From contig JAMPAI010000001.1 of assembly GCA_023667315.1 (NCBI GenBank), forward strand, positions 136,914 through 180,812: 43,899 nucleotides of DNA, read 5' to 3'. The notes under the pieces were generated by a model. It saw nothing but the letters and a program-made list of their open reading frames with translations, had not been told where the DNA came from and searched no databases. Made by a program: the position numbers and the translations under genes. The stretch comes from Ruminococcus flavefaciens (GTDB lineage Bacteria; Bacteroidota; Bacteroidia; Bacteroidales; P3). Shown piece after piece: positions 10,592 through 43,899 of the stretch. Within the stretch, counting starts at the first letter, position 1. Each line of letters begins with the position of its first letter.

Positions 10592-10603
10592 TTTTATCTT
10601 AAA

Positions 10604-10649
10604 AAACGTTGGAGAATCCGGAGTTTAACCTTCGGGTTTTCCGGCGTTT
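10604..10649 (+). terminator. Hairpin between the two FGE-like genes (terminator or attenuator)
   Basis: AAACG near the left end pairs with CGTTT at the right. Inside it, TCCGG pairs with CCGG(A)-type bases, and AACC-TTCG-GGTT forms a stable UUCG-capped stem. The downstream T-richness is broken rather than a clean run, so it may only partly terminate or may stabilise the upstream mRNA. The remaining bases to 10753 show no gene and no clear promoter. Confidence 0.45.
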
Positions 10650-10753
10650 ATTTGATCCTATTTCGTTTTGATTCTTACGTCAACCTGGTTCAGGTCTATT
10701 TATTCGGCTTGGGTTTCAGGTTTGATGATAAAGATTAATAAGCGCGAGCAAAA

Positions 10754-12415: not shown

Positions 12416-12493
12416 TTGAAGCTGAATAGATTGGACATACGTAAATGGGTGATTGCCGGTTTTTGTTTGACCGGTGTTGCCGTGGGGAGTGCC
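12416..12493 (+). other. Signal peptide and TTG start of the giant protein
   Basis: TTG 12416 is the first possible start after the in-frame TAG at 12410-12412. It reads MKLNRLDIRKWVIAGFCLTG, followed by VAVGSA. Lys2, Arg5, Arg9 and Lys10 give the positive n-region, and WVIAGFCLTGVAVG the hydrophobic core. Cleavage is possible after GSA (about residue 26). A second TTG at 12431 is the only nearby alternative and would shorten the basic region. No ATG occurs before the mature sequence. Confidence 0.7.
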
Positions 12494-15400
12494 ACTGTGG
12501 GGCGGCTTTCTTCTTTGCGTGAGAGCAGGGAGGAGGTCGCTTTGTCTGTTGCCGACCCTGCGCTTTTGCCCAATCTGTATGCTTCTTCATCTGTATTTAG
12601 CGGAGAACCGGTTCTTTACCCGCAGTTAGAGGATTTCGATTTCGATATGCCGCTGCCCGAACCGGCTTCCGGGAGTTATATTGTTCCCTTGGAACCGTCG
12701 ATTCCTCCCCTTCCGGCAGATGCAGATATGTTTGCCGAGCCGGATCCATTGATGGATATGGCGCCATTCCGTTTGGCAGGCAATGTAAAATGGAATAATC
12801 AGGGAAATGTTGTGGGGGGAGACGGTATGGCGGCTGCCATTAGTGCCCTGCCGGCATCGGGCGCTCCATACAAGGGCGGTATCGGAGAAGGTACGAAAAA
12901 CGCCAATAATACGGTAATCTATAAGCCTATCTATTTAGGCGGTATCGGCGATGGAGGTAGTGCGTCCGCCATGCCCATTATCTACAAGCCCACCTATCTG
13001 GGCGGTTTCGGCGACGGACATACTTCGTCGTCCATGCCCATTATCTACAAGCCCACCTATCTGGGCGGTTTCGGCGATGGTCATACATCGTCATCCATGC
13101 CCATTATCTACAAGCCCACCTATCTGGGTGGTTTCGGTGACGGACATACTTCGGTATCGACCCCCATGATTTACAGTACTGTATATCTGGGCGGTATCGG
13201 TGATGGACATCATTCCTCATCGATGGATATGATTTATAAGCCTACCTACCTGGGTGGTTTCGGCGACGGTCATACCACGGCTGCCATGCCTGCAATCCCG
13301 GCACCTCCATTCGTGGGTGGTTTGGGCGATGGTCATATCACGGCTACGATGCCTACCATACCGGCACCTCCGTTTGTGGGCGGTATCGGCGACGGTCATA
13401 TCACGGCCACTATGCCGCAATTACCGGCACCCCCGTTTGTGGGCGGTATCGGCGACGGTCACCATTCCATGAAGATGGATGAACCCAAGCCTTGGCCGTA
13501 TATGGGTGGTATTGCTGACGGTCATATCACATTGCAGGTTCCCGGTGTATTCTATCCGCTTTATGTGGGTGGACAGTCCGACGGTTTTGCCAAGCGCGGT
13601 CTGCCTTGCGATACCACCAAGTATAAGATCTACTCCGATTCGGCCATCTGTATCGGAGACACCTTGTTCTTAGAAACCGACAGCGTGCCTTCGGCCTCCT
13701 ATATATGGAGAGGTCCCGACGGTTGGCGTGGCGACGGCATGCGGGTGTTCCGCCCTGGCTTTACGGCCAAGATGGCGGGTACCTATACCGTTACCATCGA
13801 TCCGGGTTGCGCCGATGCCGAAGACCTGCCCATGGCCATGAAGGTAATCGACGCCATTATCCCCGATCCCGTATATGCTATTATCGACAGCGTGGTGCCC
13901 AATATGCCCTACGAACGCATGTGTTTCGGCGATTCGGCGGTGTTTGCGGTACATGGCTACGGCTGGGGCGACAGCGCGCTGTTCGACTGGCGCATCAACG
14001 GCAACTCCATTGGCGAGCCCACGCGCGATTCGGTGGTTCGGCTGGCGGGTATCGACGATGGCTTTAATGTAACGGTGGCGGTTTATTCCTCGCTCTCCTG
14101 CGTGGATGCCCGTCCGTACGTAACCAAGCCTATCCGCACCGCCGTTGACGAAAAGAAAACGGTTAACGTTAAGATTGCCTGCGATATCGACCAGAGCCTC
14201 GACAGCATCGTGGTTTGCCGCGGTTATCCGGTGCGTTTCAGTTCCTCGTATGTAAACCAAGGCGACGATCCGCGCTTTATCTGGTTGCGCAACAACGATA
14301 CCATTCTCAACGGTACACAAGACTACATTGTGCTCGACTCCCTGAAGGATGGCGACAGTATCCGCATGCTGTTGATTTCGAGCATCCGTTGTGTGGACTG
14401 CCGTCCCAAGGTGTCGAACACCATCAGGTTTACGGTTAAGGACCAACCGGTGCTCAAGGTGCCCGGCACGCAGGAAATCAACCTGGGCGAAAGCGTTACA
14501 TTGGGCGTGAGCGGCGGCAGCGAGCAGGCCGAATATACCTGGAGTCCTTGCGCTTCTTCCTGCAAGGGCGATACGGTGGTGGCCAGTCCGCGTACCAGCA
14601 CCCGCTATAAGGTTACGCTTACCGAACCTTGGCGTTGCCAGGTGGAAGACACCATCTGGGTTGAGGTCTATACCGACGTGCGTGTGCTTAACCATGCGCA
14701 GCCCATCACGGTCTGCGACAGCTCGCAAGCCAAGTTCGAGGTTAGGGCCTCGGGTGCCGAACTTTCGTTCGACTGGCAGGTGGATCAGGGCGACGGTATC
14801 TGGCGCACCATTAAGGATATGCCCAAGCCGAATCCTTATTCCGAAGTGCTGGCCAGCAGCTTTACCTCTGTATTGTATGTGGGCTTGCCCAAGAAAGACA
14901 GTGTAAACGCCACGATAAGCCAGCTTAACCTGGGCATGAACAACTACAAGTACCGTTGCCGGGTAAGCGGTGTTACCGACAAGACCCAGAAGCGCGATAC
15001 GCTCTATTCCAACGATCCCGAGAAATTCTACGGTACGGCCCGCTTGTTGATCAATCCGTTGCAAACGGCCTATGGTTCCATTTCGTTCAATACCAAAGAC
15101 ACCGTCTGCGAAGGCACGCCGGTAACCTTTACGCTCAATACCCAGAATAACCTGGCCTCCAACTATTCTATCAACTGGCTGGTAAACGATACGAGCCGTC
15201 AGGTAGGCAGGAGCACCACTTATACTTTGCCTTCCAACTTGAGCAAAAACAATACCCGGGTCAAGGCGCTCATTACCACCGGGTATGCTTGTCCGTCGTG
15301 GAATCCCGAGCCTACGGCGGAAGTTACGATGCCCGCCTTCAAGAATCCTGAAGTTCATTCGGGTGCGGATGGTACGGTTATCGTTCAGTACAATACGCGC

Positions 15401-18400
15401 GACACCTTGCGCGGCAAGGTCATCAGCACCGGTATGAAGGCTGGCGAAGACCAGACCTTGGTTTATGCCTGGACCCCGGCCAACAAGATAGAAGGTGCCA
15501 CCGATCAGCTCAACGCTCTCACCACGCCGGTACAAATCCCTGTGAAATACACCTTTACAGCCAAGAATGCTCATGGCTGTATTGGAGAACACAGCCATAC
15601 GGTAAGCCTTAAGGGTGGTAAATTGATGGCAAGAATGGGCGATGTTACGGCTTGCGAAGGCGACACGATCTGCATGCAGGTGGAAGTTTGGGGTGGTTCT
15701 GGTTCTTACAGTTTTGAATGGACGACTGCTCCACAGAACGACACACCTGCCAATCCGGATTTTGAATCGAAAGATACAGCCGACCTTTGCATGGTAAGTC
15801 CGGTGGGGCTCACCAACTATACTGTAAAGGTATCCGACGGGGTGGATGTTGTGGTTGTAACCGCCAAGGCAACCATCAATAAGCGTATGTTGAGCCAGCC
15901 GGTTCTTGCGGGCGACACCAACTATTGCGCCAATACCACCAAAGCCTTTAAGCTCAGGGTTCAGAACGATGCCTATGCCGGCAGGGTAAGCATGTACCGT
16001 TGGTATGTAAACGATACCTTGGATGCCCGTTTCGACGGTTCGATCGAATATAGCAGCATTCCCAAAGACGGCAGCCGCGTTCATTGCGAGGTAACGGTAG
16101 GTTACGCCTGTCCGGCCAAGAATCCGGTGAACACGCCTAAGGTGGGCATCCATATCTTCCCGATACCGAAACTCACCAAGATTACCGGCGACACCACGAT
16201 TTGTCCGGGTACGAGCATACAGCTTTCGGTAACCGGCAAGAAGATAGACAGTCTGTCTTGGACACCCAAAAACGAAATCGTAACGGGTGCCAATGCCACG
16301 AGCGCGTCTCAAACGGTTATCGCCAAGCCGAGTGTATCCACCGTTTATAATATAGGTCTGTTTACCAACAAGGGATGTGTGGTTAACTACAAGGTGAATG
16401 TAAACGTTCATCCGGTAACGGCGGCCACCACGCAATCGCCCACCATCTACGCCTGCGAATCGGGCGAAGCCCGCCTGCCGGTCAAGACCTCGGGTGTGGA
16501 TCTGGTTTACGATTGGCAGAAACTCGACGGCGGCAGCTGGAACAGCGTTACCAATACCACCAAATATGGCGACCTGAATACGCCTCAGCTGTTGGTTAGG
16601 GATGTGGCTCTTACCGAAGACGGCGACCAATACCGCCTGCACGTTTCCGGTCTTTGCCAGCCCGACTCCACCAGTGCGCCCATTACCTTGCACGTTATCG
16701 ATTCGGTTTACTTTGATATTGAATTGGTGGATACGCCGCGTTGCGAGAACGACCCCGCCAAGATCCGCTTCATCACCAACCTTAAAGGGCTGGAAAAGAA
16801 GATAGATGTGGTGATAAAAGGTTCTTACGGAACCCGCAGCTACATTACCCGCGACAGCGTATATACCATCCGGGCCGTATATCCCAACGACAGGGTTCAG
16901 GCATACCTTACGCCTCAGGGCATCATCGCCCAGTGCGTTACGCCGAATCCCATGCCTTCGAGCATCATCGATTTGGGTGTCAAGGAAGCGCCGTCGTTAA
17001 CCTACAAGGCGGTGAACCCCAAGGCCTGCGCCACCAACGACGGCAGCATCACGCTTAACGTTACCCGTGGCAACCAGCCCTATACCTATTATTTCGACGG
17101 GGTGGCCAATACGAACAATGTATTCGACAACTTGGGTGCCGAAATGTATGTTGCCGGCGTAACCGACAATAACGGTTGCCAGAGCAAGAATGTGGAAATA
17201 AGCCTGCGCGATCCCAACGGTCCGGTGGAACCCGTGGTTTCGAACGCCGGATTCCATTGCTCTGCCGACGGCTTGCCCGGCTTCCTCCTGATTGATCCCA
17301 AGACCAAGAAAGCGGATATCAAGTGGCATTCCGATTCCCGTTGCACCAGTTTGATCCATACGGGCGATTCCTTGGCCTTCCCCACGACGCCGGGCCTGCA
17401 TACCTATTATCTGTACCAGCAGTTCGGCAACTGCAAGAGCGGTACGGTTCGCGTGGATGTGTTCGTGGGTCAGATGCCTTCCATCGACCGCATCGATGCG
17501 GTGGTTCCCTCTTCCTGCGACCGCAGCGACGGTATCATCAGCGTCTATGCCACCGGCGACACCACGCTCGAGTACTCGATTTATGTTCCGCAACGTTTCG
17601 GCACGAACTCCGACTTTATCGACCTGCCCAACGCAACCTATCCGGTGGCGGTACGCACCTTGGCCGGTTGCACCGTGTACGATACCGTGGAACTGTACGC
17701 CTACAATACGCCCGATGCGCCCAAGATGTTGAGCCACGACACGGTTTACTGTGCCGGTTCGCCGCGTAAGCCATTGGAAGTAAGACCCGACAGGAAGGGT
17801 GCGGTTACCTGGTTCAACGACCTTACGCTGCAGAGCGTGGCCTATCGCGGCAATCCGTACAACATCAACGGCCTTAAGGAAGGCGACTATCTGTTTAGCG
17901 CCGTAGAGGCTGTGGGTACCTGCAACAGCAAGCCCGCCACGGTAAAGGTTAAGATTCTGCCCGCCATCACCACGGGTGTTCCCGATAAGGTTTACGGCTG
18001 CAAGGGCGGCTGGATGACCGTGAAGGCCAACGATGTGGAAGGCGTAAGCTATAAGTGGTACGATCCATCCAATAAATTGATTTCCACCACCGACAGCATC
18101 TATGTAAAGGTTCCCGACGATCCGAAGGTATATGTATTGGAAGCCACGCTGAGTGTGGACGGCTATACCTGCGACCTGCGTCAGAACGTTACGTTGCACT
18201 ACACCACGGATCCCGTTTACAAGGATACCACCGTATGCTTCGGCGATACGGTAGTCATTACCGTTCCCAACGGTATCGCTTATGAATGGCCCGACGGTTC
18301 GACTTCCAACACCTATCGTGTGGCCGCCGGCGGCAAGAACGGCGACAAGGAAAGCATTCCGGTTTGGGTTGAATTTGACGATGGCTGCCGTATGCAGTAC

Positions 18401-39400: not shown

Positions 39401-42400
39401 CTGGGTATGGGCAACGCCACCCTGGTACCCGCCGATGCGCTCGATGCCGACCGCTACTTCGTGGTGGCCACCTCCGCAGATAACTGCCTGGCCGACAGCG
39501 TGGCCGTGAGCGATACGGTAGAATCGGTACTCTATCCTGTACCTACGCCGCTCAAGCCTTCCGACGTGGTTTACACGCCCGCCCGTCTGTGCAGCAACGA
39601 CTCGGCATCCATCGAGATCAAGGGTTCGTACAAGGTATCGCAGATCAAGAGCCGCTGGCCGCAAACGCTCTATTACAGCATCGACAACGGCGCCACCTGG
39701 CAAACCAGCGCCTCCTTCAAGCCGCTGCCCGACGCCGCCGTATACGAAATCCTCGTCAAGAACCAGTACGGCTGTCAGGATGCCGCCAACAGGCTCAATA
39801 TCAAGCGTGCTCCGCAGAGCACCGACGTTTGGCTGGAAGCCGGTCCCGACGACACCATCGTAGCCGGCCAGACCTTCCGCGTTCACGGCGACACCGTGGC
39901 CGCCGACGGCACCCCGCAATGGACCACGGCCGGAACGGGCACGTTCGACAACGCCAACACCCTGCATCCCGTCTATACGCCTTCCGACGCCGATATCGCC
40001 GTCGGTCAGGTTAAACTCTACCTGGGCGTGAACAGCAGCGACGAGTGTCCGCTCAAAGACAGCCTTACGCTCTATATCCTCCAGTGCGGCGTTTACGAAA
40101 TCGTACGCAACGCCAGCGATACGGCGGTGGCCTGCGAAGAGTCTCCCTACACGATGATCGCCAAGCTGGTAAGCACCAATCCCGCCCTGAGCGTTCCCAA
40201 GGCCGATTACGAATGGCGCCTGATTGATGAGGTATTCGGCGGTTATACGGTTGAACATGCGGATAGCGATGCCGACAGCTCCAAGTGGACCGATCAGCAC
40301 ACGATGCCGGGTCTGTACGAACTGTACGTAAAGACCTCCACCAACTGTATCCTTACCGATACGTTCCAGCTTGAACTGCAGCCCGTACCCACGGGAGACG
40401 GCAAGATTGAGGTCCGCTATCCGGGCGGCGCCAACGCCATCAGCATGTGTGCCAACGATACGGCGCGTCTCGTGATTGTCGATGCAAGCGAACAGTATAT
40501 CTACACATGGCCCGACGGTTCCACGAGCGATGGTATCACCGATAACGAATATCCCGTAACCGCCACCAAGGATACCTCGGTGATTGTTAAGATTACCAGC
40601 AAGAAGGGCGGATGCGAAGGTTACGATACCTTAGAAATCCTGGTTGACAAACCGTTCGTAATAACCCTTACCAGCAACGATACTACGGTTTGTCCGGGTT
40701 CGGAAGTGCGTCTGCCCAAGATCTCGGTTGCCGGCTTCGGTGCGGGCGTTCCCCTTACCGACTACTGGTGGACGAACGTTCAGGGCGATACCGTGGATGC
40801 CGGAGCCTACGCTTCGCAGAACCGTCCGGTAATGAGGATCGACAGAGACACCGTTTACCGTGGCTACGCCACTACAACGGCCAAGTGCCAGAGCGCGATG
40901 GCGGAATTCAAGGTAACGGTGGATAAGTACACCTTGGCACTCGGCGATACCTTGGCCATCTGCAACGGCGAACAGGCCAGGATCTCCATGCCGGCCAACA
41001 CGAAGAACTACACCGTAAACGGCCGCGTGCTCACGGCTGCCTCGAATGCTGCCTTCGACTTCAGCACGGCTGCTCTTTACCGCGACACTGTATTGGTGGT
41101 AACGGCCAACAGTTCCTTGGGCTGCGGTTATATCGACACCTTGTTTGTGGATGTACTGCCTGTTCCCGACATGAACATCGTGAATGCCGGTGCCTGCGCC
41201 AACCAGCCGGTTGTCCTGAGCCTGCCCAATCTGGATGAAACCGATGAATGCGCGTGGAACGTAAGCACCGTTTCGGGCAGCTACAGCTTTACCGGCGACA
41301 GCATCAGCTTCAGGCCCGCCGCCAAAGACAGTGTATTGTACATCGACCTGAAGGTGACCAACCGTCTGGGTTGCGAATACACCAAGAAAGACACCATCGG
41401 AATATATACGTGGCCGAACCTGAACATTCACGACACCACGGTCTGCGAAGGCACGCCCAAGGTGGAACTGATACCCGATATGGCGAAGGTAACCGCGCAG
41501 TACAGGATTACCTGGCTCGATAAGGGCTTGGATACCTCCGTTAAGTTGCCGAACGCGCTTACGCACAGACTTTCTGTGGCCGATACGGTAAGTCACCGTT
41601 ACTACTACGTTGTTCAGAACCGGAACAACGGATGTACGGATACAGCCTCCGTAATGGTTAACATTACCCGTCTGCCCAAACTTGATCACAAGGTGGATGA
41701 TACGCTTTGTGAACCCGCTACAAGGTTTACCTACATTTACAATACTATTGTGAACTGGAGTGCGGCTGAATACCTTTCCGATGGAACGTTAAATGTCGGA
41801 TTGTTATCTCCTGTGAGAGGTATAAGATCGTCGTACACTCCCTCCACTAAATTCTGGAACATCGGTGGTGAAGTTCGCTTGAAAGTTTCTGTACAAGGAC
41901 AAGCGGAATGTAAAGACAGAACGGTTTATGACTCCTTTAAGATTGTCTATACCTCTCCGTTGAATGTGCCTTCTATCGATAATAAGTTTATATGTTTGAG
42001 CAGCAAGGATAATGCTAAGGTAGAAGTGGACTTGACCGGCACACGTAAGAATATGGCCGGTATGGAATGGAAGCTCAGCAATAACGAAGTGGTTCCGAGT
42101 TTGGATACGACCAATCAGAAATATAAATATACCTTGGTTTATACCAATCCGGGAGGCGATACGAATGTGGTATATAGAGATACCCTTAGGGTTTGGAATG
42201 CAGTGAACTGTATGATTGTTCGTCCTTTCCGCGTTGAGTTTATATCGGCACCCTATATTGCGCCCGATACGGTTACGATATGCCCCGGAGATACGGTATC
42301 GCTGAAAGTGTCCAACCCGAATTCCACACGGAGTGCCTATTGGTTTAATATGGAAACCGGAAAACGTGATGCGACGGGTAATGTGGTTAAGTTGCATCCT

Positions 42401-43899
42401 GCGAAGACTACGACCTATAGGGTTACGCAATTATATAGTGCAAACTCGAACTGTAGCAGTACTAATGTCGAGGATACCGTAACGGTGGTGGTTCGCGACC
42501 GCATCCTGGTGGAAACCGCGGGCGACACCAATGTCTGCGAGATTACCGACGTGAAGGTGGGCGTTACCAAGGTTTCGCAGAACGTACACCGTTACGAATG
42601 GATAGACAGTGCCTCCGGTAGCGTGGTAAGCACCGACAGCGCGTTCATGATGAAGGCCGTGTCCGAAAACCATACCTATTACCTCACGGTATGGAACGAC
42701 AGCACCGGCTGCTCCGACCGCGACACCCTGCACCTTACCTACGGCGGCAACCTCTACAAGCTGAACTTCTACGACACGACGGTTTACCGTGGAACCACTA
42801 TCGATGTGGTGGTGAGCGGCCCGTGGCCCACCGACAAGCCGGCCAACTGTCCGTACGAATGGTTCAACAATACGGATACCGTAACCATCTGCAATACAGA
42901 CAGTATCTGGCATCTGAAGGCCGAAAAAGACGCTTACTATACGCTTTACCTGCGTGGCGGTGAAACCGAATGTTACAATAACCTGAATGTTAAGGTTATC
43001 GGTTTGAACCTGCACGACACGGCGGTTTGCGACTACTGTCCGACCGAAATCGGCATCGATTCGGTAGAACTGGATTACGTGGAATGGATCTATCTGGATA
43101 CCTTGCGCTTTACCTCCGGCCATACCGATCCGGTGGAAATGCACTTCTGCTTTGATGATACGGTAAAGAACAAGCATCAGGTAATCAGCGACTCGCTCTA
43201 TTACCATGCCTATGTGATTCCGTATCCCTACAAGGTTAAGGAAAGCGACACCGTGCCCGCCGGTCCGTTCTGCGACACCATTTTCTCCGAACCGCGCATC
43301 GAACTGGCATACGACGGCAAGCGTCCCGCCACTCACGGAACCAAGACCGAAGACATCGATGTCTATAAGGAATTCCTGCACTGGAACAAGGTAGAGGTGG
43401 TATGCCAAGAAGCCGCCCCCGGCAAGAAATTCGTCTGCGACACCTTGTTTGCGGTAAATGTTTATATCGATTGGATGACAGGAATGGATGTAATAGAACG
43501 ACAAGATAAAGGTACGCTTGTTAATTGCCGTGAGGTAGATAGTGTTTGTGTGGCAGTAGGTATTGAAGATCATTTGACGGATTTGAATGATTATGATACT
43601 GTGGTGGTTAAATGGAACTGCTCAACAATAACTCCGCCTACAAATGTTAAGCAAGTTTGTGATACAATCTACGACGTCACGACGGTGCCGGGTACGTTCC
43701 CGTGGGATCCGGTAGTTGAAAAACTGGTGTTGAACAGGGTAGAGAACTGCCAGGACGTAGCCGAGGGTTGTACGGTAAGCTATAAGAAGGAACGTTCATC
43801 CGACGGAATGACGGAAACCGTGAAGGCGACGGTAGAATGTGGCGGAGGCGAAACACCGAAGAAGACGGTATGCGACACGATCTACGACATCACGACGGT
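12416..43899 (+). CDS. Giant secreted multi-domain surface protein, at least 10,494 residues (3' partial)
   Basis: One frame stays open from just after TAG 12410-12412 to the right edge: 31,484 bases without a stop in every stretch I translated. No separately terminated frame occurs in this register anywhere between. The best start is TTG 12416, giving a basic N-terminus and a hydrophobic core (signal peptide). Layout: acidic/Pro linker; 12 GGxGDG-type repeats (12875-13630); a long array of roughly 80-100-residue Ig/PKD/SprB-like modules, most with a Cys near the first strand (xxCxGD) and one near the end (xGC); four lectin-like domains (21908, 24092, 31940, 36593); large super-repeats; and a 71-codon repeat beginning at the edge. 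I saw no enzyme motif. By analogy with SprB-like and other Bacteroidota giants it is probably a T9SS-exported adhesin. The C-terminal sorting domain lies outside the window. Mass exceeds 1 MDa. It follows the second FGE-like gene by 9 bases. Confidence 0.93.
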   Translation, partial: MKLNRLDIRKWVIAGFCLTGVAVGSATVGRLSSLRESREEVALSVADPALLPNLYASSSVFSGEPVLYPQLEDFDFDMPLPEPASGSYIVPLEPSIPPLPADADMFAEPDPLMDMAPFRLAGNVKWNNQGNVVGGDGMAAAISALPASGAPYKGGIGEGTKNANNTVIYKPIYLGGIGDGGSASAMPIIYKPTYLGGFGDGHTSSSMPIIYKPTYLGGFGDGHTSSSMPIIYKPTYLGGFGDGHTSVSTPMIYSTVYLGGIGDGHHSSSMDMIYKPTYLGGFGDGHTTAAMPAIPAPPFVGGLGDGHITATMPTIPAPPFVGGIGDGHITATMPQLPAPPFVGGIGDGHHSMKMDEPKPWPYMGGIADGHITLQVPGVFYPLYVGGQSDGFAKRGLPCDTTKYKIYSDSAICIGDTLFLETDSVPSASYIWRGPDGWRGDGMRVFRPGFTAKMAGTYTVTIDPGCADAEDLPMAMKVIDAIIPDPVYAIIDSVVPNMPYERMCFGDSAVFAVHGYGWGDSALFDWRINGNSIGEPTRDSVVRLAGIDDGFNVTVAVYSSLSCVDARPYVTKPIRTAVDEKKTVNVKIACDIDQSLDSIVVCRGYPVRFSSSYVNQGDDPRFIWLRNNDTILNGTQDYIVLDSLKDGDSIRMLLISSIRCVDCRPKVSNTIRFTVKDQPVLKVPGTQEINLGESVTLGVSGGSEQAEYTWSPCASSCKGDTVVASPRTSTRYKVTLTEPWRCQVEDTIWVEVYTDVRVLNHAQPITVCDSSQAKFEVRASGAELSFDWQVDQGDGIWRTIKDMPKPNPYSEVLASSFTSVLYVGLPKKDSVNATISQLNLGMNNYKYRCRVSGVTDKTQKRDTLYSNDPEKFYGTARLLINPLQTAYGSISFNTKDTVCEGTPVTFTLNTQNNLASNYSINWLVNDTSRQVGRSTTYTLPSNLSKNNTRVKALITTGYACPSWNPEPTAEVTMPAFKNPEVHSGADGTVIVQYNTRDTLRGKVISTGMKAGEDQTLVYAWTPANKIEGATDQLNALTTPVQIPVKYTFTAKNAHGCIGEHSHTVSLKGGKLMARMGDVTACEGDTICMQVEVWGGSGSYSFEWTTAPQNDTPANPDFESKDTADLCMVSPVGLTNYTVKVSDGVDVVVVTAKATINKRMLSQPVLAGDTNYCANTTKAFKLRVQNDAYAGRVSMYRWYVNDTLDARFDGSIEYSSIPKDGSRVHCEVTVGYACPAKNPVNTPKVGIHIFPIPKLTKITGDTTICPGTSIQLSVTGKKIDSLSWTPKNEIVTGANATSASQTVIAKPSVSTVYNIGLFTNKGCVVNYKVNVNVHPVTAATTQSPTIYACESGEARLPVKTSGVDLVYDWQKLDGGSWNSVTNTTKYGDLNTPQLLVRDVALTEDGDQYRLHVSGLCQPDSTSAPITLHVIDSVYFDIELVDTPRCENDPAKIRFITNLKGLEKKIDVVIKGSYGTRSYITRDSVYTIRAVYPNDRVQAYLTPQGIIAQCVTPNPMPSSIIDLGVKEAPSLTYKAVNPKACATNDGSITLNVTRGNQPYTYYFDGVANTNNVFDNLGAEMYVAGVTDNNGCQSKNVEISLRDPNGPVEPVVSNAGFHCSADGLPGFLLIDPKTKKADIKWHSDSRCTSLIHTGDSLAFPTTPGLHTYYLYQQFGNCKSGTVRVDVFVGQMPSIDRIDAVVPSSCDRSDGIISVYATGDTTLEYSIYVPQRFGTNSDFIDLPNATYPVAVRTLAGCTVYDTVELYAYNTPDAPKMLSHDTVYCAGSPRKPLEVRPDRKGAVTWFNDLTLQSVAYRGNPYNINGLKEGDYLFSAVEAVGTCNSKPATVKVKILPAITTGVPDKVYGCKGGWMTVKANDVEGVSYKWYDPSNKLISTTDSIYVKVPDDPKVYVLEATLSVDGYTCDLRQNVTLHYTTDPVYKDTTVCFGDTVVITVPNGIAYEWPDGSTSNTYRVAAGGKNGDKESIPVWVEFDDGCRMQYIYVVTTRLGQPTDVSINKDFELYCSGEKHKLTAKLSNPTVPVTLQWYKDGMDISDANAGTLNIDGLEAGNYTYVVTSTAKEFCTTPRVTSDTVQIRVYETPTVEAGTDIPDVAYGEKTIIGKDADVTGGITPYTYLWTGNGVGSDNDRLTILSNRLYSSTTVTLTATDSVGCSAKDDLKITVIGGPFRISLDKPYDFPMDKFSEVVCLNDSVRLRVKPEGGSGSYQVIWKELFADGTTSGVLDTLADYIFTAHHSATYKVTVINLTGAGDATAADTLTGTVSLTVNMPPAAGIISTPDTTMCSDTAYTVRLNGYFGDKIVWQYSYDSMIWSGLANNVDSVRLASGAAQTRQTTYYRVGVSNGVCPMQYAEDFKVLVYEDLNNNINYQGPDQPLCPEVTDVKFSGNEVTEGGNGTYEYKWQWSKTANGTYAPCPSDLGTQGYTWPGRIDSSRYVRRVVFSDGCPFFSQSVKVSVYDDSNIGEIEGENYVCIDSVGYLSVPNTKMESYRWEVATDTAVASSDWAEIAGAMMSSYQTDPMKRGDTLFYRAIGQKNGCEPDTTAAFHVIATDPLPVAAFISVDTMEACLNTLVVFQLDSVHFPGNKPSYAWYVNGSKLTLPVKNGKDTLAYASKDGKTLYIKNLQPGDSVQCALMSSIGCVTERVALSNAVKPTIYVPEVYIVSPADDLTFCRRDTVSILADSADFYRWIYFGEGDTSLGILHTGSYVYQDTLIKVSPEKPTMYYVQGVDRHGCYGIDSVRLTPEPVIDRTPDTVLCAGNTLTIKAVATSPTKGVTYSWKEVAVAAPASPATLKGALTVNTFKKVEPKDSLTYYIYTVKTSAPRYCTYTDTIRVEVQQNMQPKVDVVYDGTMLPPDTAHIVECEKVEHFFSYESEWGGDEPKYTWFFNGEAVSSDTIFSDRYPDMVDHSSIYVEMESSRRCVTQRTVKSNQLKVKYTKMPEAVVAINSNKGTSICPSEEVVIFQAHAPTYDTGIFEWYVKRVDSVKFSRVHIGDSLVSTFGTGDQVYCVYIAQDSCIKYSPKRSNTLTFTNYKLWKPTVEIIRLDAGREGRGDTVCEMTDVVFQARIADQGTDYRFTWLVDGMEVGTVNNLTLTYSDFIAQQGDEYKQNHITARLETKHTCAVPSNLNSDDTIVYVQPRKNFGVTIEQDVLQACNSLKYEPVAFTHIYGPLSVSGNSIANNCHDSYWNTGAISQQSIEGNGGVSAYAGTTGFHQMFGLTSRKNVKSYTDLDYAIYFNWGKLEVYENGAYKGSFGGYNTVQKYTVEIADSVVRYLRDGSVFYTSTVQDTIGLYYGGFSLYSICHAGCTNPDHSHFPNMRAYIEYRSSSITFGSSVFAPPINKPDYDWLVNDNSFEFGNGGDSLYDHKYRFEPNDVVTLVVHSNDVCMERLVAESNPVTVHPTDPGEFLHLADTAYVCLGDSVRLTASGAKTYTWELPLDMDTATVHDNSILVWPQKTTTYRVTGFNEDGCSDFKRIVVVVFELPKPDLGPDREACYADSLYFSVTKGSVPDSVTDRFHRTEWVFMTASDTVAMASEYDNAIRFVAEESGKLVATMINKFSGCYTVDTLRLTVHPLPLVKMPDDTLEICIKHDLAIYDTAYDQDYKKVNTYTWTPATGLSNGNGYTNGSCKIFNRADTGLFTYYVDVKSPKGCHSYDTVYVRNIKQELSLGIDLIRSTVCEGEAPQFILTGQWWDTLATATLYRNGSQVATYAVGRPGEFQRDTVSYTGTIAHNDRYQFKISSLNQCLVVKEVWSATDTLGVVYTTTLAPTPDSLCIGHDLLLKALPAQDSNVHYKWTMCNSYEQTVIKFIGATPDTVHETVYINHASFGKDTNTLVVKMPALPTYFMVEADGGHGCVTRDTTYVNIIEADTLWAKAEQSLDSCYNPEMLTPTWDFTSNALIPMAGGQIIKDGAQSHAWTYITSPTKLHGNFMYRYVINGTEGSSMVGINYEGRRHTGCSNWWYNWCGYDADYTFYLSWQNNRPILEIYERGNYIAKYGEYKEGDVLFIIRQSGYISYYHNENLLRRVRERSPEKNFNPEVSMHCPGTAVEPVHYVELQDIELTNSAGTIAAPMAHKWYLNGKLVSKDSVLKVYNVNFTGNHDTLVYEVSGQTKCDGYVTVRDTVAVKSPKGFSPVFLQLSTDEKKCQGRDFTVRAHLINRSGEVPDTAIRYNWYRGDVLFAGGTRADSILVPNVGINEYVWAQAYVDTASMHCAFNNIKNPVRSSYLTLPVEPAKVLGVNVDVFPGETVCLFSDVLFNVTQVVSGQLDAGDNPTVEWYLNDRLVSTDRTYKTDSLQQGDSVYAIVTASTEVSCLDTNRKQTRVVHMNVLPAPVLAAHKDTIVTYNSEAGLWAEVIKNWEPGITYEWYPAFDINEPYKATDSATVVRSRIDHYYTVQARNSIGCYSNEASVHVEVLTCPQFILRGSGTKACAGDSAFLYLQVQGFRPYTNNYFWQISHDNGTTWRTLDETTDANFGIRVGTNSVTLVFSQALAIYDKSQSIFRCAAVATDTMLSCDTVYSRELFLDIVDYTIPVASISGDTSICPRSPVIFTASGAVNKGDYYQWYVNGKMVSGNGNTLQLDSVNANTEISVTTVIRNDQNACVDNAHATDTLNIMVLPKPQLVMYPDTSIHIGDTAPVGVRVSGGFAPYTYSWNGLPNTTLFNAHVDSTATKKQIFTTIYTVTVTDSNGCFAKGSMTVNIEDTCKLYASIYGPKTICFDSTATFKGLVTGGLQNGDLHYLWKCEPVADTTVITFTGKEFTLTAMIPGEYELTFMVIDSTEYIPEFCPNESHSASATFTFTVAPPKTFHTAIDSLGAVCFGTGSTLTAKAFVDSLPTRIAVSYNWKQHNMFGDVIRQQYSTKNQFDVKKWSDGDWISLTAVLGGNECETGVTAHDTLRPVINPLPGPLKTNRMYVGGLEPCTFDTASIGLSVPIGQKGLVQFTIDGGKTWHNDSLFKPVVDGVYYPGVKYVATGCEYISDTAIEVTIPEPTKMPDVDVAGDNDFCAGSPIDDFVASNGSHDAIVGWYSAQDFDSVLVEGAIGQDRVAYTLPDSVKNVLGEHTIYAAQRAGDCKSDFKPFTFNVRERDTADGLYLKYVRRFKCIADSNPLDVKILAFFDSINVEGTYIWTSLNNVPITGTGSEIVASVIDSTRIYLTFTYVSSCDSTTRTLVHSDTISINVLDPGNDLEEGSVLCINESKVARSLDQSAINDEEIFHYTWYAKRYNADGTYTWSAATGDNAHENYTVLHSYLASVPGKPADYKELTLRRIVSADGCVDTSNEITFYYQPAPLATATLTVLEVCPGQDVEAVVNGTDLGTAPYVKWYVDGKRKPAYDTLVANFGPLKDGAKIRAVVYPVYDTLCTIVDSIAMDAVVKVVDAIEADVKVEVSDTLFCTLNNTFKAVYNAAYSTDPQYRWFYNGVHVPEADGKATYSRSDVQPGDLVSVTIAATGDCPAAPTASSTPVLASHKGATVQGSVQAVIDAELSRLDSVKFQATGAQSYIWQDNNATGSTHVVYAKSGNNVYCVQLHTDGYCDTVLCVSSVVPTAELEIPTVCAIQDVQATVSGTNLGTAPTVDWYVNGNKVSANDVLNKNLGQLMDGTPVTAVVWPDYSALGLPAGTATVDSLVLNGTATVTPSIDGTVTLTVSDTLFCNVTNTFTASYNTEYSDKPNYRWYHNGVLKTAANGKNTYSAAVQDGDSVYVWIFAHNDCPASDSVRSEAYRVVKGLTVPARIDVAVNDTLCLGDTLKVTAAGAASYEWNDKSTDAVREFVAADRPATYTVTAHTDGYCDTTMSVTVVSRVRPANTKLDQKDLTVCGADTVLLSVSRDPSASVLWNTGSTADTVRFIVPSIKTSDTTFTATFTDAYGCEYGPDAVTVHIRDSRPVNFISDNLGLPDTACWRSTFSAVAKVEPNDKAEMYYTWYRSGAYWKSGYNLDSLSLKGTDFPSASPYVIKVILQDNGVCLRMRQDTIVDTIIVEQPKEAGINIQSNSHIDNDTLRICVGEPTRLFAAVSNAGPVFADGSHNWYIEWYKNGQFVQRSDTVTFAELAVGSKIYAILYVDTTECNYAINSPVKSRVLTVVSVPQPDVRVDLSLRIDTICSNRDYEVTAAVTNGGTDPTYRWYVNGFLMTTGDERGNTVPIDGPILDMVNIRQQSAQEGTNYDIVCWVKSSLACAADSVRNQGVATLVVFPADTLKVVITPQIDTACAYENGDVVVNMHADVSGMAEGYDVEEPDLQWYVAADENSASTPIAGERNKDLHYITKNLTGNEVFSVRAFSKYRCTWNSTLVSEKAKIFLWPIRSEAGNNDTARNYAPVTLSTDSATGGSPHWITRGDGHFVKADTSHPTYVLGANDKLADGVWLVQEVSNRFGCLVADSMYLVISHCDDYTWKTDLQAVTVCHDRPVSLNNGVVAKTNAPDAVKSAEYVLVALASGSHPVDTLAVSDSVVFDWSGVVDTTRNLVLIGHINNTDCLYTDTIPVTVLPRNEIAVELTQDGADTCQSYKADTASWEIGGWNMPLHWNLNGGTLNHVHCSNMQRVFSGNYGGANTTVRYVATGREYTSIVGFSYEGSNGHYNDINLDYGFYFSEGKVGVYNRGLVGEYQLENPYEAGDVFTVIRRNHKVYFYLDQRNEHKLLQVIDEPESGWERRVRYAIGSPNVGSSYNPLVYINEPAITVSDSIRFSPLEGSFLYSWTLNDTLHSSASVWEAEKYNLKAGDRLKLEVKGITECDTVEAADSIVIVKSHDYEPIYVTLVHDSAGDCEYDEFTLTATVHNLPAGVSAGDLRYNWYRNGVAEVKGTTDNVYVLKDVKIGDYAYAEAYITGTTCVLNPEANPAPSHRVTFSLKENKKLGIRLVQQTKTEPAICPGDEVKMQAVVTNGGSYEISWYVNDALYTTGENLSLVPTGDVTIYALVSAKNEDVCLDTTLVSSDTVSVHMSVIPVVRAWADTTVTRNSRVPLHGEVIANADEAVRFAWTSNCGGVENASKLNTEITARNSCMYYLRAYNSVGCASEPDTVEVNVYDCPALSSIGVPASVCEGDSAAISITMSGYKPSTNTYEWQLSTDGGTNWTDISGDARFTSATTATGSVLGIRSATFDLDARNNTLFRCVVTATDTNLQFCPSVTTSDIKLNVDTATRQLPTIKITGPTDLCATASTMSAIYAAQLTPGYEVMWKQNGSGVLEYDGNDHIRGYTVRDGDKVIGVLYGASPCVNRLEISDTLTVRFFKQPTLKAWKDTIVAFNTNATVNALLDNPNGDVTYSWTPADQVADAGAASTITAKLTKSTVFTVSASDTASCSAEAKVTVIVSDTCVRSVELTGPESVCINETATFTGLVTGGGVLGKYDISWTVSPALDNNDGLEEMNNGGVPVLSFSNPTPGDYMVTFTVTDTGEAVRKFCYENGIVLSASKTLHIPERDTFGVSLKVEKDSVCEGSAITLAASATLNGNEAGTDLNYAWYRIRDGRTAYVGSSSPVLTVPDAKDKDRYYVVVNPKEGCRKDDKAQSNEVEVTVYPVPEPLKPYQVYAHSHLSCADDTAFILIDAGLQQNLLYSIDSGATWHAETLFKPLAKGTYHVMVKGEAGCEAAGVQTVYIDVQPEYNFTAPDVVPDSVVSCINDPAPIKAYNDQPGYMAWYADADLTQRLAVSVQDADSMLYVPAVDTPGRYVFYVKKALVDCEGPATEVPYIAGTCDIRLEPAPAGLCPGSDTPLYIVADEATRNISKNWIYQYSEDGKFVDTATVTVSARDRMDTVFVSKPGYYRIVDTTIWNTVMYSNVSEVQLGSYAILDNLFTVEYPINGATSMCPGKYTTIRLNGLSPDYYVEWPDTTNGSSYTHKYDTTTDVKVVVKSVIGGCAVDTSIHIIVLEKQYIKLSYNDTTICLGRGQQASLVLPKIMDSGEVFPAYTNYTWYRNGLIHVTGRYDRQDPASVVRLTIEPEVGDYVYVAQAHSLKDCPSMPDTVRIHVRQLDFELNPDSLAFCGGESDSISLPAADSISVNGVFMPYVSKLAVGPIVRDSVMAITLYSDVCRATDTLKLHYIQPDSLVAELKPVADTCLEITADTMRWNGSTLHTAANGWQSVYAADTIRANAELNYVVSGAEGAMVIGLEYVGDARGLWNKPFSIYLSDNGSADARKFYLYENGWEVNYTAMGDYRTGDLFTVRREGGAVEYYHNGSLLRRVEESGSLRSKALRASASTYYHGSEIAAMRIDNLPAPQVGTSLYHRYDDLHYAWFVNGRAAGTDSVLSDNYILVAGDTVVWQVTSYGLCDTAFSADTLVVDTANAYASIGLKLTADNESVCKGEAVLLTANITRLPEGVSLSDLRYNWYINGSAAALGTTSATYTHNNVQDGDYARVEAYADSKLCLLNGRNNPALSNTLYLKVDSADKIEFALDVQPDAVVCEGDELTFSAVASGLKYAPTVEWFVNDVKKGSGNSFSLADAKNGDKVYAVATFDAKENCQGGKTLRSNTVTITVNPVPAVRALADVTVNRGDEVSLTGIVTSGWTPGMAYTWTPSTLTADTVTKVIAHNSTTYTFTAVNAYGCEAEADVRVDVDECAYIAAQSSVHAPAVCVGDSTDFTVNVSGYQADTYTYIWQISSDNGNTWGDVAAPMYVNRGMSLHIPAVTSQMNGSQYRAVVTPNAAHSHCDTLYSLPFTLTVNTNTRQGTMDIDGLEDLCANNETFTYRMNASVQTGDHFYWYLNDVVVGQDINTLNLTKEQIGKGGILKSVWNMADGACASQKAYADSIEISMGSELSVIAGNDTVITKNTQAALFAQAVGGTEPYTYTWSPALSATTTGQRTLTQPLASTTVFTVTATGAHGCQAQAQVKVTVMDTCLQDVVISGEQGTGDQTSCQGEQVELQALVSGGMPGNYTINWSITPALAANDYVPVQNNSDLWIRPSVPGVYTIKVTVNDTSALSAEHCDAAHRTVTNQINLTVTGKDTLAVSLAEPDSVCKNTEFSLTAKATVNGKAANNVSYHWYRIREDVLHDLGMGNATLVPADALDADRYFVVATSADNCLADSVAVSDTVESVLYPVPTPLKPSDVVYTPARLCSNDSASIEIKGSYKVSQIKSRWPQTLYYSIDNGATWQTSASFKPLPDAAVYEILVKNQYGCQDAANRLNIKRAPQSTDVWLEAGPDDTIVAGQTFRVHGDTVAADGTPQWTTAGTGTFDNANTLHPVYTPSDADIAVGQVKLYLGVNSSDECPLKDSLTLYILQCGVYEIVRNASDTAVACEESPYTMIAKLVSTNPALSVPKADYEWRLIDEVFGGYTVEHADSDADSSKWTDQHTMPGLYELYVKTSTNCILTDTFQLELQPVPTGDGKIEVRYPGGANAISMCANDTARLVIVDASEQYIYTWPDGSTSDGITDNEYPVTATKDTSVIVKITSKKGGCEGYDTLEILVDKPFVITLTSNDTTVCPGSEVRLPKISVAGFGAGVPLTDYWWTNVQGDTVDAGAYASQNRPVMRIDRDTVYRGYATTTAKCQSAMAEFKVTVDKYTLALGDTLAICNGEQARISMPANTKNYTVNGRVLTAASNAAFDFSTAALYRDTVLVVTANSSLGCGYIDTLFVDVLPVPDMNIVNAGACANQPVVLSLPNLDETDECAWNVSTVSGSYSFTGDSISFRPAAKDSVLYIDLKVTNRLGCEYTKKDTIGIYTWPNLNIHDTTVCEGTPKVELIPDMAKVTAQYRITWLDKGLDTSVKLPNALTHRLSVADTVSHRYYYVVQNRNNGCTDTASVMVNITRLPKLDHKVDDTLCEPATRFTYIYNTIVNWSAAEYLSDGTLNVGLLSPVRGIRSSYTPSTKFWNIGGEVRLKVSVQGQAECKDRTVYDSFKIVYTSPLNVPSIDNKFICLSSKDNAKVEVDLTGTRKNMAGMEWKLSNNEVVPSLDTTNQKYKYTLVYTNPGGDTNVVYRDTLRVWNAVNCMIVRPFRVEFISAPYIAPDTVTICPGDTVSLKVSNPNSTRSAYWFNMETGKRDATGNVVKLHPAKTTTYRVTQLYSANSNCSSTNVEDTVTVVVRDRILVETAGDTNVCEITDVKVGVTKVSQNVHRYEWIDSASGSVVSTDSAFMMKAVSENHTYYLTVWNDSTGCSDRDTLHLTYGGNLYKLNFYDTTVYRGTTIDVVVSGPWPTDKPANCPYEWFNNTDTVTICNTDSIWHLKAEKDAYYTLYLRGGETECYNNLNVKVIGLNLHDTAVCDYCPTEIGIDSVELDYVEWIYLDTLRFTSGHTDPVEMHFCFDDTVKNKHQVISDSLYYHAYVIPYPYKVKESDTVPAGPFCDTIFSEPRIELAYDGKRPATHGTKTEDIDVYKEFLHWNKVEVVCQEAAPGKKFVCDTLFAVNVYIDWMTGMDVIERQDKGTLVNCREVDSVCVAVGIEDHLTDLNDYDTVVVKWNCSTITPPTNVKQVCDTIYDVTTVPGTFPWDPVVEKLVLNRVENCQDVAEGCTVSYKKERSSDGMTETVKATVECGGGETPKKTVCDTIYDITT
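12812..13630 (+). repeat. 63-bp (21-residue) GGxGDG tandem repeats
   Basis: The Gly-Gly dipeptide starts at 12875, 12938, 13001, 13064, 13127, 13190, 13253, 13316, 13379, 13442, 13505 and 13568, a spacing of exactly 63 bases each time. A degenerate first unit lies at 12815. Two unit types are visible: YKPTYLGGFGDGHTSSSMPI in the first half and PAPPFVGGIGDGHITATMP in the second. The outermost units are the most diverged (GEG, ADG, QSDG). The pattern is not the RTX nonapeptide, because the period is 21 residues. The acidic GDG/H positions could bind a metal; that is inference. It separates the signal region from the Ig-like array. Confidence 0.95.
13631..21907 (+). other. First Ig/PKD-like array of the giant protein
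   Basis: About residues 406-3164 are a continuous run of beta-sandwich-like modules. Typical cues recur: a Cys followed by a GD/GE step (ICIGDTLFLET near 13650, CFGDSAVFAVHG near 13920, VTACEGDTICMQV near 15645, TTICPGTSIQLSV near 16190), a central W or F in a YxW strand, and a closing TVTV...GC strand. This is the Ig-like/PKD-like pattern seen in Bacteroidota surface proteins. Module boundaries cannot be placed exactly by eye. Confidence 0.75.
17027..17220 (+). other. SprB-repeat-like module
   Basis: The segment runs from Cys (17027) through NDGSITLNVTRGNQPYTYYF to VAGVTDNNGCQSKNVEISL. This matches the SprB-repeat pattern: DGSI, then GGxxPYxYxW, then the closing YxVxVxDxxGC. The repeat is named after the Flavobacterium gliding adhesin SprB. 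A looser copy follows at about 17480-17730 (SCDRSDGIISVYATGD). The match is to a family pattern, not proof of gliding. Confidence 0.6.
21908..22427 (+). other. Lectin-like (ConA/SPRY-like) domain 1
   Basis: Residues about 3165-3337 begin at Cys (CNSLKYEP) and break the Ig pattern. The core LDYAIYFNWGKLEVYENG, then KGSFGGY, then VRYLRDGSVFYTS is the signature of a concanavalin/SPRY-like bacterial domain: a jelly-roll of paired strands with YENG and a repeated NG turn. Carbohydrate binding is the usual suggestion for this fold and is inferred here. Confidence 0.65.
22428..24091 (+). other. Ig/PKD-like modules between lectin-like domains 1 and 2
   Basis: Several modules with the usual cues: AYVCLGDSVRLTASGAKTYTWE, closing YRVTGFNEDGC; DREACYADSLYFSV; a TWTPATGLSNGNG strand; and STVCEGEAPQFILTG. 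This stretch links the first lectin-like domain to super-repeat A. Confidence 0.65.
24092..24630 (+). other. Lectin-like domain 2
   Basis: Residues about 3893-4071 start at Cys (CYNPEMLTPTWDF). The core includes DADYTFYLSW, LEIYERGNYIAKYGEYKEGD, and then ISYYHNENLLRRV. It shares the Y-E-x-G, GD-x-(F/L) and YY-x-N-x-x-LLRRV positions with the other copies. It heads super-repeat A. Confidence 0.65.
24092..27690 (+). repeat. Super-repeat A of the giant protein
   Basis: The order is lectin-like domain 2; a module with IRYNWYRG; a PKD-like module (TIVTYNSEAGLWAEV, closing ARNSIGC); a module with FWQISHDNGTTW; a TASGAVNKGDYYQWYVNG module; a PYTYSWNG module; a CFDSTATFKGLVTGG module; and a module with FTIDGGKTWHNDSLFKP. 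Super-repeats B and C show the same order with clear residue similarity but considerable divergence. The distance from the lectin Cys to the IDGGKTW motif (27272) is 3180 bases. Confidence 0.75.
27691..31939 (+). other. Ig/PKD-like modules between super-repeats A and B
   Basis: This stretch interrupts the super-repeat series. It includes the internal duplication at 28331-29850, further Ig-like modules (LCLGDTLKVTAAGAASYEWN; RICVGEPTRLFAAVSNAG), and a module with HWITRGDGHFVKADTSHPTY near 31430. That last type recurs after super-repeat C near 39890 (QWTTAGTGTFDNANTLHPVY). Confidence 0.65.
28331..29850 (+). repeat. Tandem duplication of a three-module block (about 759 bp)
   Basis: Two consecutive blocks match along their length. 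Each opens with a Cys then QDV (CPGQDVEAVVNGTDLGTAP, Cys at 28346; CAIQDVQATVSGTNLGTAP, Cys at 29105; offset exactly 759 bases or 253 codons). Each continues with VSDTLFC...NTF and YRW..NGV and ends with HTDGYCDT (about 29029 and 29793). The copies differ at many residues, so the duplication is not recent. Confidence 0.8.
31940..32470 (+). other. Lectin-like domain 3
   Basis: Residues about 6509-6685 start at Cys (CQSYKADTASWEIGG). The core contains INLDYGFYFSEGKVGVYNRG, then PYEAGDVFTVIRRNHKVYFY. It keeps the Y-x-x-G, GD-x-F-x-V-x-R and terminal hydrophobic strand of the family. It heads super-repeat B. Confidence 0.65.
31940..36592 (+). repeat. Super-repeat B (about 4.65 kb)
   Basis: Lectin-like domain 3 is followed by the same module order as A: LRYNWYRNG, TVTRNSRVPLHGEV closing YNSVGC, YEWQLSTDGGTNW, TYSWTPADQ, CINETATFTGLVTGG, LNYAWYRIRDG, and YSIDSGATWHAETLFKP (ATC of SID at 35093, 3153 bases after the lectin Cys). 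It extends further with MCPGKYTTIRL, DTTICLGRGQQ and FCGGESDSISLPA modules that reappear in C. It directly abuts super-repeat C. Confidence 0.8.
36593..37084 (+). other. Lectin-like domain 4
   Basis: Residues about 8060-8222 start at Cys (CLEITADTMRWNGS). The core is FYLYENGWEVNYTAMGDYRT, then GDLFTVRREGGAVEYYHNGS and LLRRVEE. It is the copy closest to domain 2 at the YYHN/LLRRV end. It heads super-repeat C. Confidence 0.65.
36593..41160 (+). repeat. Super-repeat C (about 4.57 kb)
   Basis: Lectin-like domain 4 is followed by LRYNWYINGS, DVTVNRGDEVSLTG closing NAYGC, YIWQISSDNGNTW, PYTYTWSPALS, SCQGEQVELQALVSGG, VSYHWYRIRED, and YSIDNGATWQTSASFKP (39680, 3087 bases after the lectin Cys). MCANDTARLVI, DTTVCPGSEVRLP and AICNGEQARISMPA modules follow. 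The order parallels B module by module. One added module, QWTTAGTGTFDNANTLHPVY, is absent at that place in B. Confidence 0.8.
41161..43654 (+). other. Distal modules of the giant protein, with AT-rich patches
   Basis: Ig-like modules continue (TTVCEGTPKVELIPDMAK; VTICPGDTVSLKVSNPNS; TNVCEITDVKVGV) without a lectin-like domain. Base composition drops visibly to AT-rich at about 41690-42480 and again at about 43465-43680, while the frame stays open. The last part (42960-43440) is Cys-rich and less Ig-like (CDYCPTEIGIDSVELDYVEW). It may be the transition to the C-terminal region. Confidence 0.55.
43655..43899 (+). repeat. Start of a 71-codon tandem repeat at the window edge
   Basis: VCDTIYDVTTV begins at 43655 and VCDTIYDITTV at 43868, exactly 213 bases (71 codons) apart. 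The intervening unit includes WDPVVEKLVLNRVENCQD and KKERSSDGMTETVKATVEC. Only one full unit and the start of a second are inside the window. The related earlier phrase FVCDTLFAVNV (about 43432) may be a diverged copy. Confidence 0.6.

What the first reader, a model, noticed from the sequence alone, without database searches (positions are those of the whole stretch)
12416..43899. Open reading frame of at least 10,494 codons, cut by the window edge
A single frame runs 31,484 bases to the edge with no stop, opening at a TTG with a signal peptide. Even incomplete, the product exceeds 1 MDa, which puts it among the largest bacterial proteins. The structure (signal peptide, Gly-rich repeats, around a hundred Ig-like modules estimated from length, lectin-like domains) indicates a giant cell-surface fibre or adhesin. 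To my knowledge this domain layout has no named counterpart.
Basis: partly seen in the sequence, partly recalled or inferred. Interest (0 to 1): 0.92.

Follow-up and report, generated by a model that had tools for sequence, protein, structure and literature searches.

The report
Giant surface fibre with detached export tag
This is a real gene for a 10,624-residue bacterial protein, most likely a surface fibre built from some 76-89 immunoglobulin-like modules; unusually, the tag that should send it out of the cell lies on a separate neighbouring gene in this genus, but on the same protein in the sister genus.

Summary

The unexpected part is the end. The giant has no type IX secretion (T9SS) sorting domain. 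The next gene, a 1,010-residue 'cap' with its own signal-like N-terminus, carries a type A one. In sister genus g9 (2 of 2 genomes covering the junction) both are one reading frame, and g7 is consistent with that; in genus g1 they are separate in 7 of 7 genomes. The split is thus probably derived. I infer that the cap binds the giant's C-terminus and carries it out: a two-piece cargo. The split is shown; binding and co-export are not. Otherwise it is a giant adhesin-like protein of the SprB kind.

The parts
12416..43899 (+). Giant open reading frame, codons 1-10,494 of 10,624 (stop outside the window at C11:181201-181203)
   Evidence: orthologues and dN/dS
12416..12511 (+). N-terminal basic and hydrophobic segment (signal peptide or anchor), TTG start
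   Evidence: TTG-AAR start and hydrophobic stretch in 7 of 7 genus g1 genomes with the giant
12938..13630 (+). Eleven 21-residue Gly-rich repeats, GGxGDG or variant (residues 175-405)
   Evidence: exact 21-residue period
13595..43072 (+). Ig-like modules, mostly head to tail (residues 394-10,219), 76 at i-E<0.01, 89 at <1
   Evidence: iterated profile, shuffles 0; Pfam Ig_7 hits
21878..22465 (+). Jelly-roll-family domain 1
   Evidence: profile, alignment A3
24068..24631 (+). Jelly-roll-family domain 2
31913..32485 (+). [not shown]
36563..37099 (+). Jelly-roll-family domain 4
43271..43899 (+). C-terminal array of cysteine units (CD[TS]xY...), continuing past the window; the place of the split
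   Evidence: alignments; units listed
10742..12406 (+). FGE-sulfatase-fold protein with signal-like N-terminus, immediate upstream neighbour (start codon unresolved)
   Evidence: Pfam PF03781 E 2e-9; present in 11 of 11 family genomes with the giant
8687..10591 (+). Second FGE-sulfatase-fold protein with signal-like N-terminus
   Evidence: Pfam PF03781 E 6.5e-13; sequence

Best explanation
A surface fibre of about 1.16 MDa: N-terminal Gly-rich repeats, a shaft of 76-89 Ig-like modules with four jelly-roll domains (ligand unknown), and a C-terminal array of cysteine units. Its ancestor was one T9SS type A cargo with its sorting domain at the C-terminus. On the stem of genus g1 the gene split just after the cysteine array: the giant kept its N-terminus but lost the sorting domain, and the last roughly 1,000 residues became a separate 'cap' protein with its own signal peptide and the type A domain. 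Both are encoded by adjacent genes. I infer that the cap binds the cysteine array in the periplasm, gives the T9SS its signal in trans, pulls the giant through the SprA translocon, and anchors its base at the cell surface. Shown: ORF reality, domain layout, split in g1, fusion in g9, constraint on both halves. Probable: that the split is the derived state. Inferred: binding, co-export, anchoring, adhesion.
For: ORF and constraint. The giant's last 624 residues match no NCBIfam family at E<=0.1 and in Pfam only a sub-threshold Ig_7; none of the 84 TIGR04183 or 9 TIGR04131 matches in its own genome lies in the giant, while one TIGR04183 match lies in the cap. Cap: TIGR04183 E 1e-9, CTD dN/dS 0-0.05. 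Junction: 7 of 7 g1 genomes split, stops TAG/TAG/TAA/TAG/TAG/TGA/TAA; in the 6 with a readable cap start the gap is 20-89 nt, offsets fall in all three frames, and the cap begins with a hydrophobic segment, so readthrough or a common frameshift does not join them. Fused in G020 and G040 (g9): units before the cap match the giant's unit profile at E 3e-7 and 2e-9, with no comparably hydrophobic segment (best 12-residue mean 1.3 and 1.5 against 2.0-3.3 in the split caps). In G039 (g7) the cap homologue ends a 1,219-codon frame open at the contig edge. SprA tree ((g7,g8),(g10,(g9,g1))), ultrafast bootstrap 100 at these forks. Cap found at E<=1e-20 in 7 of 13 g1 genomes, the same 7 that hold the giant or its N-terminus. 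T9SS substrates are deduced to leave SprA CTD-first (PMC10994853, passages).
Against: No binding or secretion data. The two genes are adjacent, so shared presence may be linkage. The cap's N-terminal part does not match the giant's unit profile better than shuffles. In G039 the frame before the cap holds other cysteine-bearing repeats, which match the unit profile only at 0.055 or worse, so its fusion to the giant is likely, not shown, and with it the direction of change. Giants of g9 and g7 lie on several contigs; no whole fused giant was seen in one piece. G040 also has, in tandem, a second cap-like protein (1,347-codon frame) with its own signal-like N-terminus, so free-standing CTD proteins of this family occur outside g1. 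The model of the giant's C-terminal region is poor (pLDDT 49) and says nothing on binding.
Confidence: 0.5

Rival explanations
1. The C-terminal cysteine array is itself a new kind of T9SS sorting signal, so the giant is exported on its own and the cap is an independent cargo left over from the split.
For: The array is conserved in g1 and ends within a few residues of the stop in G000, G003, G006, G007, G008 and G012.
Against: The same kind of unit lies internal to the protein, before the type A domain, in g9. In 101 genomes all 17 matches to the giant's last 424 residues lie at the giant or cap loci or at contig ends that fit them, none as the tail of other cargo. G005 carries 49 further unrelated residues after its last unit. 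No match to known CTD models.
Confidence: 0.22
2. The split has ended export: the giant is now a periplasmic or outer-membrane-retained scaffold, and the cap serves alone.
For: The giant has an N-terminal export-like segment but no CTD.
Against: Purifying selection over the whole length, and giant length (8.4-10.6 thousand codons) in six g1 genomes, suggest an unchanged role.
Confidence: 0.17
3. Assembly or base-calling error in the repeat array separates what is really one gene.
For: Several assemblies break or hold N runs in the array (contig ends in G006, G008 and G012; N in G003), and G000 has two unresolved residues there.
Against: 7 of 7 g1 genomes show a stop after the array, and the 6 readable ones a short gap and a new start with a hydrophobic segment; stops, gap lengths and frame offsets differ between species.
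Confidence: 0.05

Closest known systems
SprB of Flavobacterium johnsoniae (giant T9SS gliding adhesin)
   Same: Huge repeat-built protein of Bacteroidota; SprB-repeat Pfam matches in the giant, below the curated cut-off (E 3e-6); PorP/SprF-family gene in the neighbourhood.
   Different: SprB carries its own type B CTD, with the shuttle SprF encoded immediately downstream (PMC12618676, passages read); here no CTD is found on the giant, the cap has a type A CTD, and the PorP/SprF gene lies about 18 kb downstream behind a separate type B protein.
RemA-type T9SS type A adhesin with lectin domain
   Same: Type A CTD (on the cap), lectin-like folds; type A CTDs gave surface anchoring or release (PMC12618676, passages).
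   Different: 76-89 Ig-like modules and a sorting domain encoded by a separate gene.
Large extracellular proteins Giant1-5 of Apilactobacillus kunkeei (PMC12863079, start of abstract seen in listing)
   Same: Size class of 3,000-8,000 residues, extracellular.
   Different: Other lineage (lactic acid bacteria); no relation tested.

Membership tests
[quoted passage not shown]
   Giant's last 624 residues: no NCBIfam hit at E<=0.1, Pfam only a sub-threshold Ig_7; no TIGR04183/TIGR04131 match in the gene. Met by the neighbouring cap and by the fused g9 ends; Por_Secre_tail found in 9 of 9 caps or fused ends scanned.
[quoted passage not shown]
   TIGR04189, 2474 bits at G000:C77; 40 of 41 genomes searched.
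[quoted passage not shown]
   Conserved basic and hydrophobic N-terminus in 7 of 7 g1 genomes with the giant; no signal-peptide predictor available.
SprB-type gliding adhesin | Type B CTD with cognate SprF encoded next door | tested here: not met
   No TIGR04131 match in the giant; the PorP/SprF gene follows a separate 3,246-codon type B protein and an OmpA-domain protein.
SprB-type gliding adhesin | Moves along the cell surface and is needed for gliding | not testable with these tools
   Needs live cells.
Concanavalin A-like / SPRY jelly roll | Two-sheet jelly-roll fold | tested here: met
   [not shown]
Concanavalin A-like / SPRY jelly roll | Sugar binding | not testable with these tools
   Fold does not show ligand; no convincing Pfam match in 9 of 9 members scanned.

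The most novel reading that the evidence does not exclude
An obligate two-piece T9SS cargo: a megadalton fibre with no sorting signal is exported in trans by a separate, signal-bearing cap protein that was once its own C-terminus. In the listings of searches of the held papers (15 of 32, 7 of 7, 6 of 6, 10 of 214 and 8 of 13 papers listed) I saw no title or abstract start that describes such a case; these papers were not read through.
Probability: 0.42. Interest if true: 0.8.

Novelty: new variant of a known kind. Interest (0 to 1): 0.6.

Why it matters
T9SS cargo of human pathogens is described as invariably carrying a C-terminal sorting domain (PMC8545088, abstract passage), and substrates are deduced to leave the translocon CTD-first (PMC10994853, passages). 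A natural split of cargo and signal, seen in every genome of the genus that carries the pair (7 of 7) and with fused relatives as a built-in control, makes it directly testable whether the T9SS can carry a partner protein, and of what size. It also suggests how a megadalton fibre could be separated from its anchor.

Tried and rejected
Known CTD hidden in the giant's tail: not found. Cap N-terminus as a further cysteine unit: the unit profile does not match it better than shuffled caps. The repeats before the G039 cap as the same unit: not supported (best 0.055). Stop-codon readthrough or one common frameshift joining the genes: rejected because stops and frame offsets differ between species. 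Sulfatase-type CxPxR motif as a target of the neighbouring FGE-fold proteins: none in the giant. FGE-fold neighbours as GldJ/GldK: no such NCBIfam hit. Jelly-roll domains by sequence: no useful Pfam or PDB-sequence match; the fold comparison was needed. Structure of the C-terminal region (A4): accepted only and of low confidence (pLDDT 49.2, pTM 0.30), so not used and not searched. The Foldseek 'pdb' search did not run. A habitat search gave only two listings; the label Kf353 occurs in one, a termite-gut paper.

Full report
Observation. The frame starting at TTG 12416 runs to the window edge without a stop, 10,494 codons. The window lies in a 476,293-base contig, C11. Adding the adjacent contig stretch puts the stop at C11:181201-181203, so the full protein has 10,624 residues, 1,161 kDa, pI 4.9, 244 cysteines. 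Long open frames on the opposite strand (up to 2,221 codons) look like shadows: G000 and G008 differ by 919, 718 and 2,458 substitutions at positions 1, 2 and 3 of the giant's codons, and dN/dS is 0.186 with no 1,000-codon window above 0.34; for G000-G006 it is 0.278 with none above 0.37. The TTG start is conserved in the 7 g1 genomes that carry the gene.

Relatives. Of 101 genomes (own plus 100 relatives), the N-terminal 900 residues match with E<=4.5e-82 in ten: G000, G003, G005, G006, G007 (a fragment at a contig end), G008, G012 (genus g1), G020 and G040 (g9), G031 (g10); G039 (g7) matches at 2e-16 with a frame of at least 7,113 codons.

The export problem. T9SS cargo carries a C-terminal sorting domain. 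The last 624 residues of the giant match no NCBIfam family at E<=0.1 and in Pfam only a sub-threshold Ig_7. The genome has SprA, 84 type A matches (82 over cut-off) and 9 type B matches (8 over cut-off); none falls in the giant. The next gene, C11:181274-184303, encodes a 1,010-residue protein, which I call the cap, with a hydrophobic N-terminus and a type A domain (TIGR04183 E 1e-9).

Split and fusion. In genus g1 the giant ends after its last cysteine unit (G005 with 49 extra residues) and the cap begins separately in 7 of 7 genomes that hold them: G000, G003, G005, G006, G007, G008, G012; in G012 the cap start is obscured by N. In G006, G008, G012 and G007 the end of the array and the cap are read from a contig other than the one with the rest of the giant. 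Stops are TAG, TAG, TAA, TAG, TAG, TGA and TAA (order G000, G008, G006, G003, G005, G007, G012), gaps 20-89 nt, offsets in all three frames. In genus g9 (G020, G040) cysteine units run without a stop into the homologue of the cap; those units match the giant's unit profile at E 3e-7 and 2e-9, while the g1 caps do not match it. In g7 (G039) the cap homologue ends a frame of 1,219 codons that reaches the contig edge, about 677 codons before the matched stretch (which begins at cap residue 488); that part holds other cysteine-bearing repeats that do not clearly match the unit profile (best 0.055) and no obvious signal peptide. It is consistent with fusion but does not show it. All 9 caps or fused ends scanned carry Por_Secre_tail. 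A tree of SprA (17 rows; g7, g10 and g9 stand in as G018, G021 and G020; G018 has an odd letter make-up) groups g9 with g1, then g10, then g7+g8, ultrafast bootstrap 100 at each of these forks. If G039 is fused, one split on the g1 stem explains the pattern and a split ancestor would need two fusions; without G039 the direction is open. G031 (g10) ends at a contig edge and no cap was found. The cap is constrained (dN/dS 0.145-0.18), its sorting domain strongly (0-0.05), and its first 85 residues little (0.5-0.8). At E<=1e-20 it is present in 10 of 190 family genomes. G040 has a second, tandem cap-like protein with its own signal-like N-terminus.

Interpretation. The conserved separation, with both halves under selection, is most simply explained if the cap still does for the giant what it did when they were one protein: deliver it to the translocon and hold it at the surface. 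Published work shows a type A CTD bound inside SprA and deduces that it leaves first (PMC10994853, passages), and type A CTDs giving static anchoring or release (PMC12618676, passages). Binding and co-export are inferences; the rivals are a new sorting signal in the cysteine array, or loss of export. The model of the giant's C-terminal region is too poor to help.

Neighbourhood. Two FGE-sulfatase-fold proteins with signal-like N-termini lie immediately upstream. Their homologue is found (E<=1e-15) in 11 of 11 family genomes with the giant, and in none of the 6 g1 genomes without it. In other families of the order I looked at 10 of the 11 loci with this FGE gene: 6 (G087, G093, G100, G070, G072 twice) have a nearby protein with, by eye, a Gly-rich GGxGxG-like motif at its N-terminus, several with a tail that looks like a type A CTD; 4 (G077, G086, G098, G099) do not. 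The giant may thus be an extreme form of a widespread pair. Downstream lie a C69 peptidase, a 3,246-codon type B cargo, an OmpA-domain protein that resembles PorE (below that family's cut-off) and a PorP/SprF-family protein.

Noticed in passing
window 8687-12406 and loci L118-L127: FGE-sulfatase-fold genes with signal-like N-termini pair with proteins bearing N-terminal Gly-rich GGxGxG motifs: beside the giant in g1, g7, g9 and g10, and near much smaller proteins in 6 of 10 loci looked at (of 11) from other families (motif judged by eye). What the pair does is unknown.
   Followed up: partly
window about 30416-36415 (codons 6000-8000): Non-synonymous divergence between G000 and G008 rises to 0.145-0.20 here against 0.03-0.07 in the other full 1,000-codon windows (the last 545 codons are also high, 0.15), as if this block had been exchanged by recombination.
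   Followed up: no
G031:C61 (L043-L045): A relative in genus g10 has an open frame of at least 13,428 codons, cut by the contig edge.
   Followed up: partly
G040:C32 (L055), ORF from nt 3012: A second cap-like protein (1,347-codon frame) with its own signal-like N-terminus follows the fused one in tandem.
   Followed up: no
C11 about 186186-200130 (L002, L003): Separate T9SS type B module: 3,246-codon PKD/CHU_C protein, OmpA-domain protein and PorP/SprF-family protein.
   Followed up: partly
window 13673-40630, minus strand: Very long shadow open frames opposite the giant, up to 2,221 codons.
   Followed up: partly
G039:C61 (L096): Upstream of the g7 cap homologue the frame holds tandem repeats of about 133 residues with CDSLV motifs, unlike the g1 units.
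   Followed up: partly
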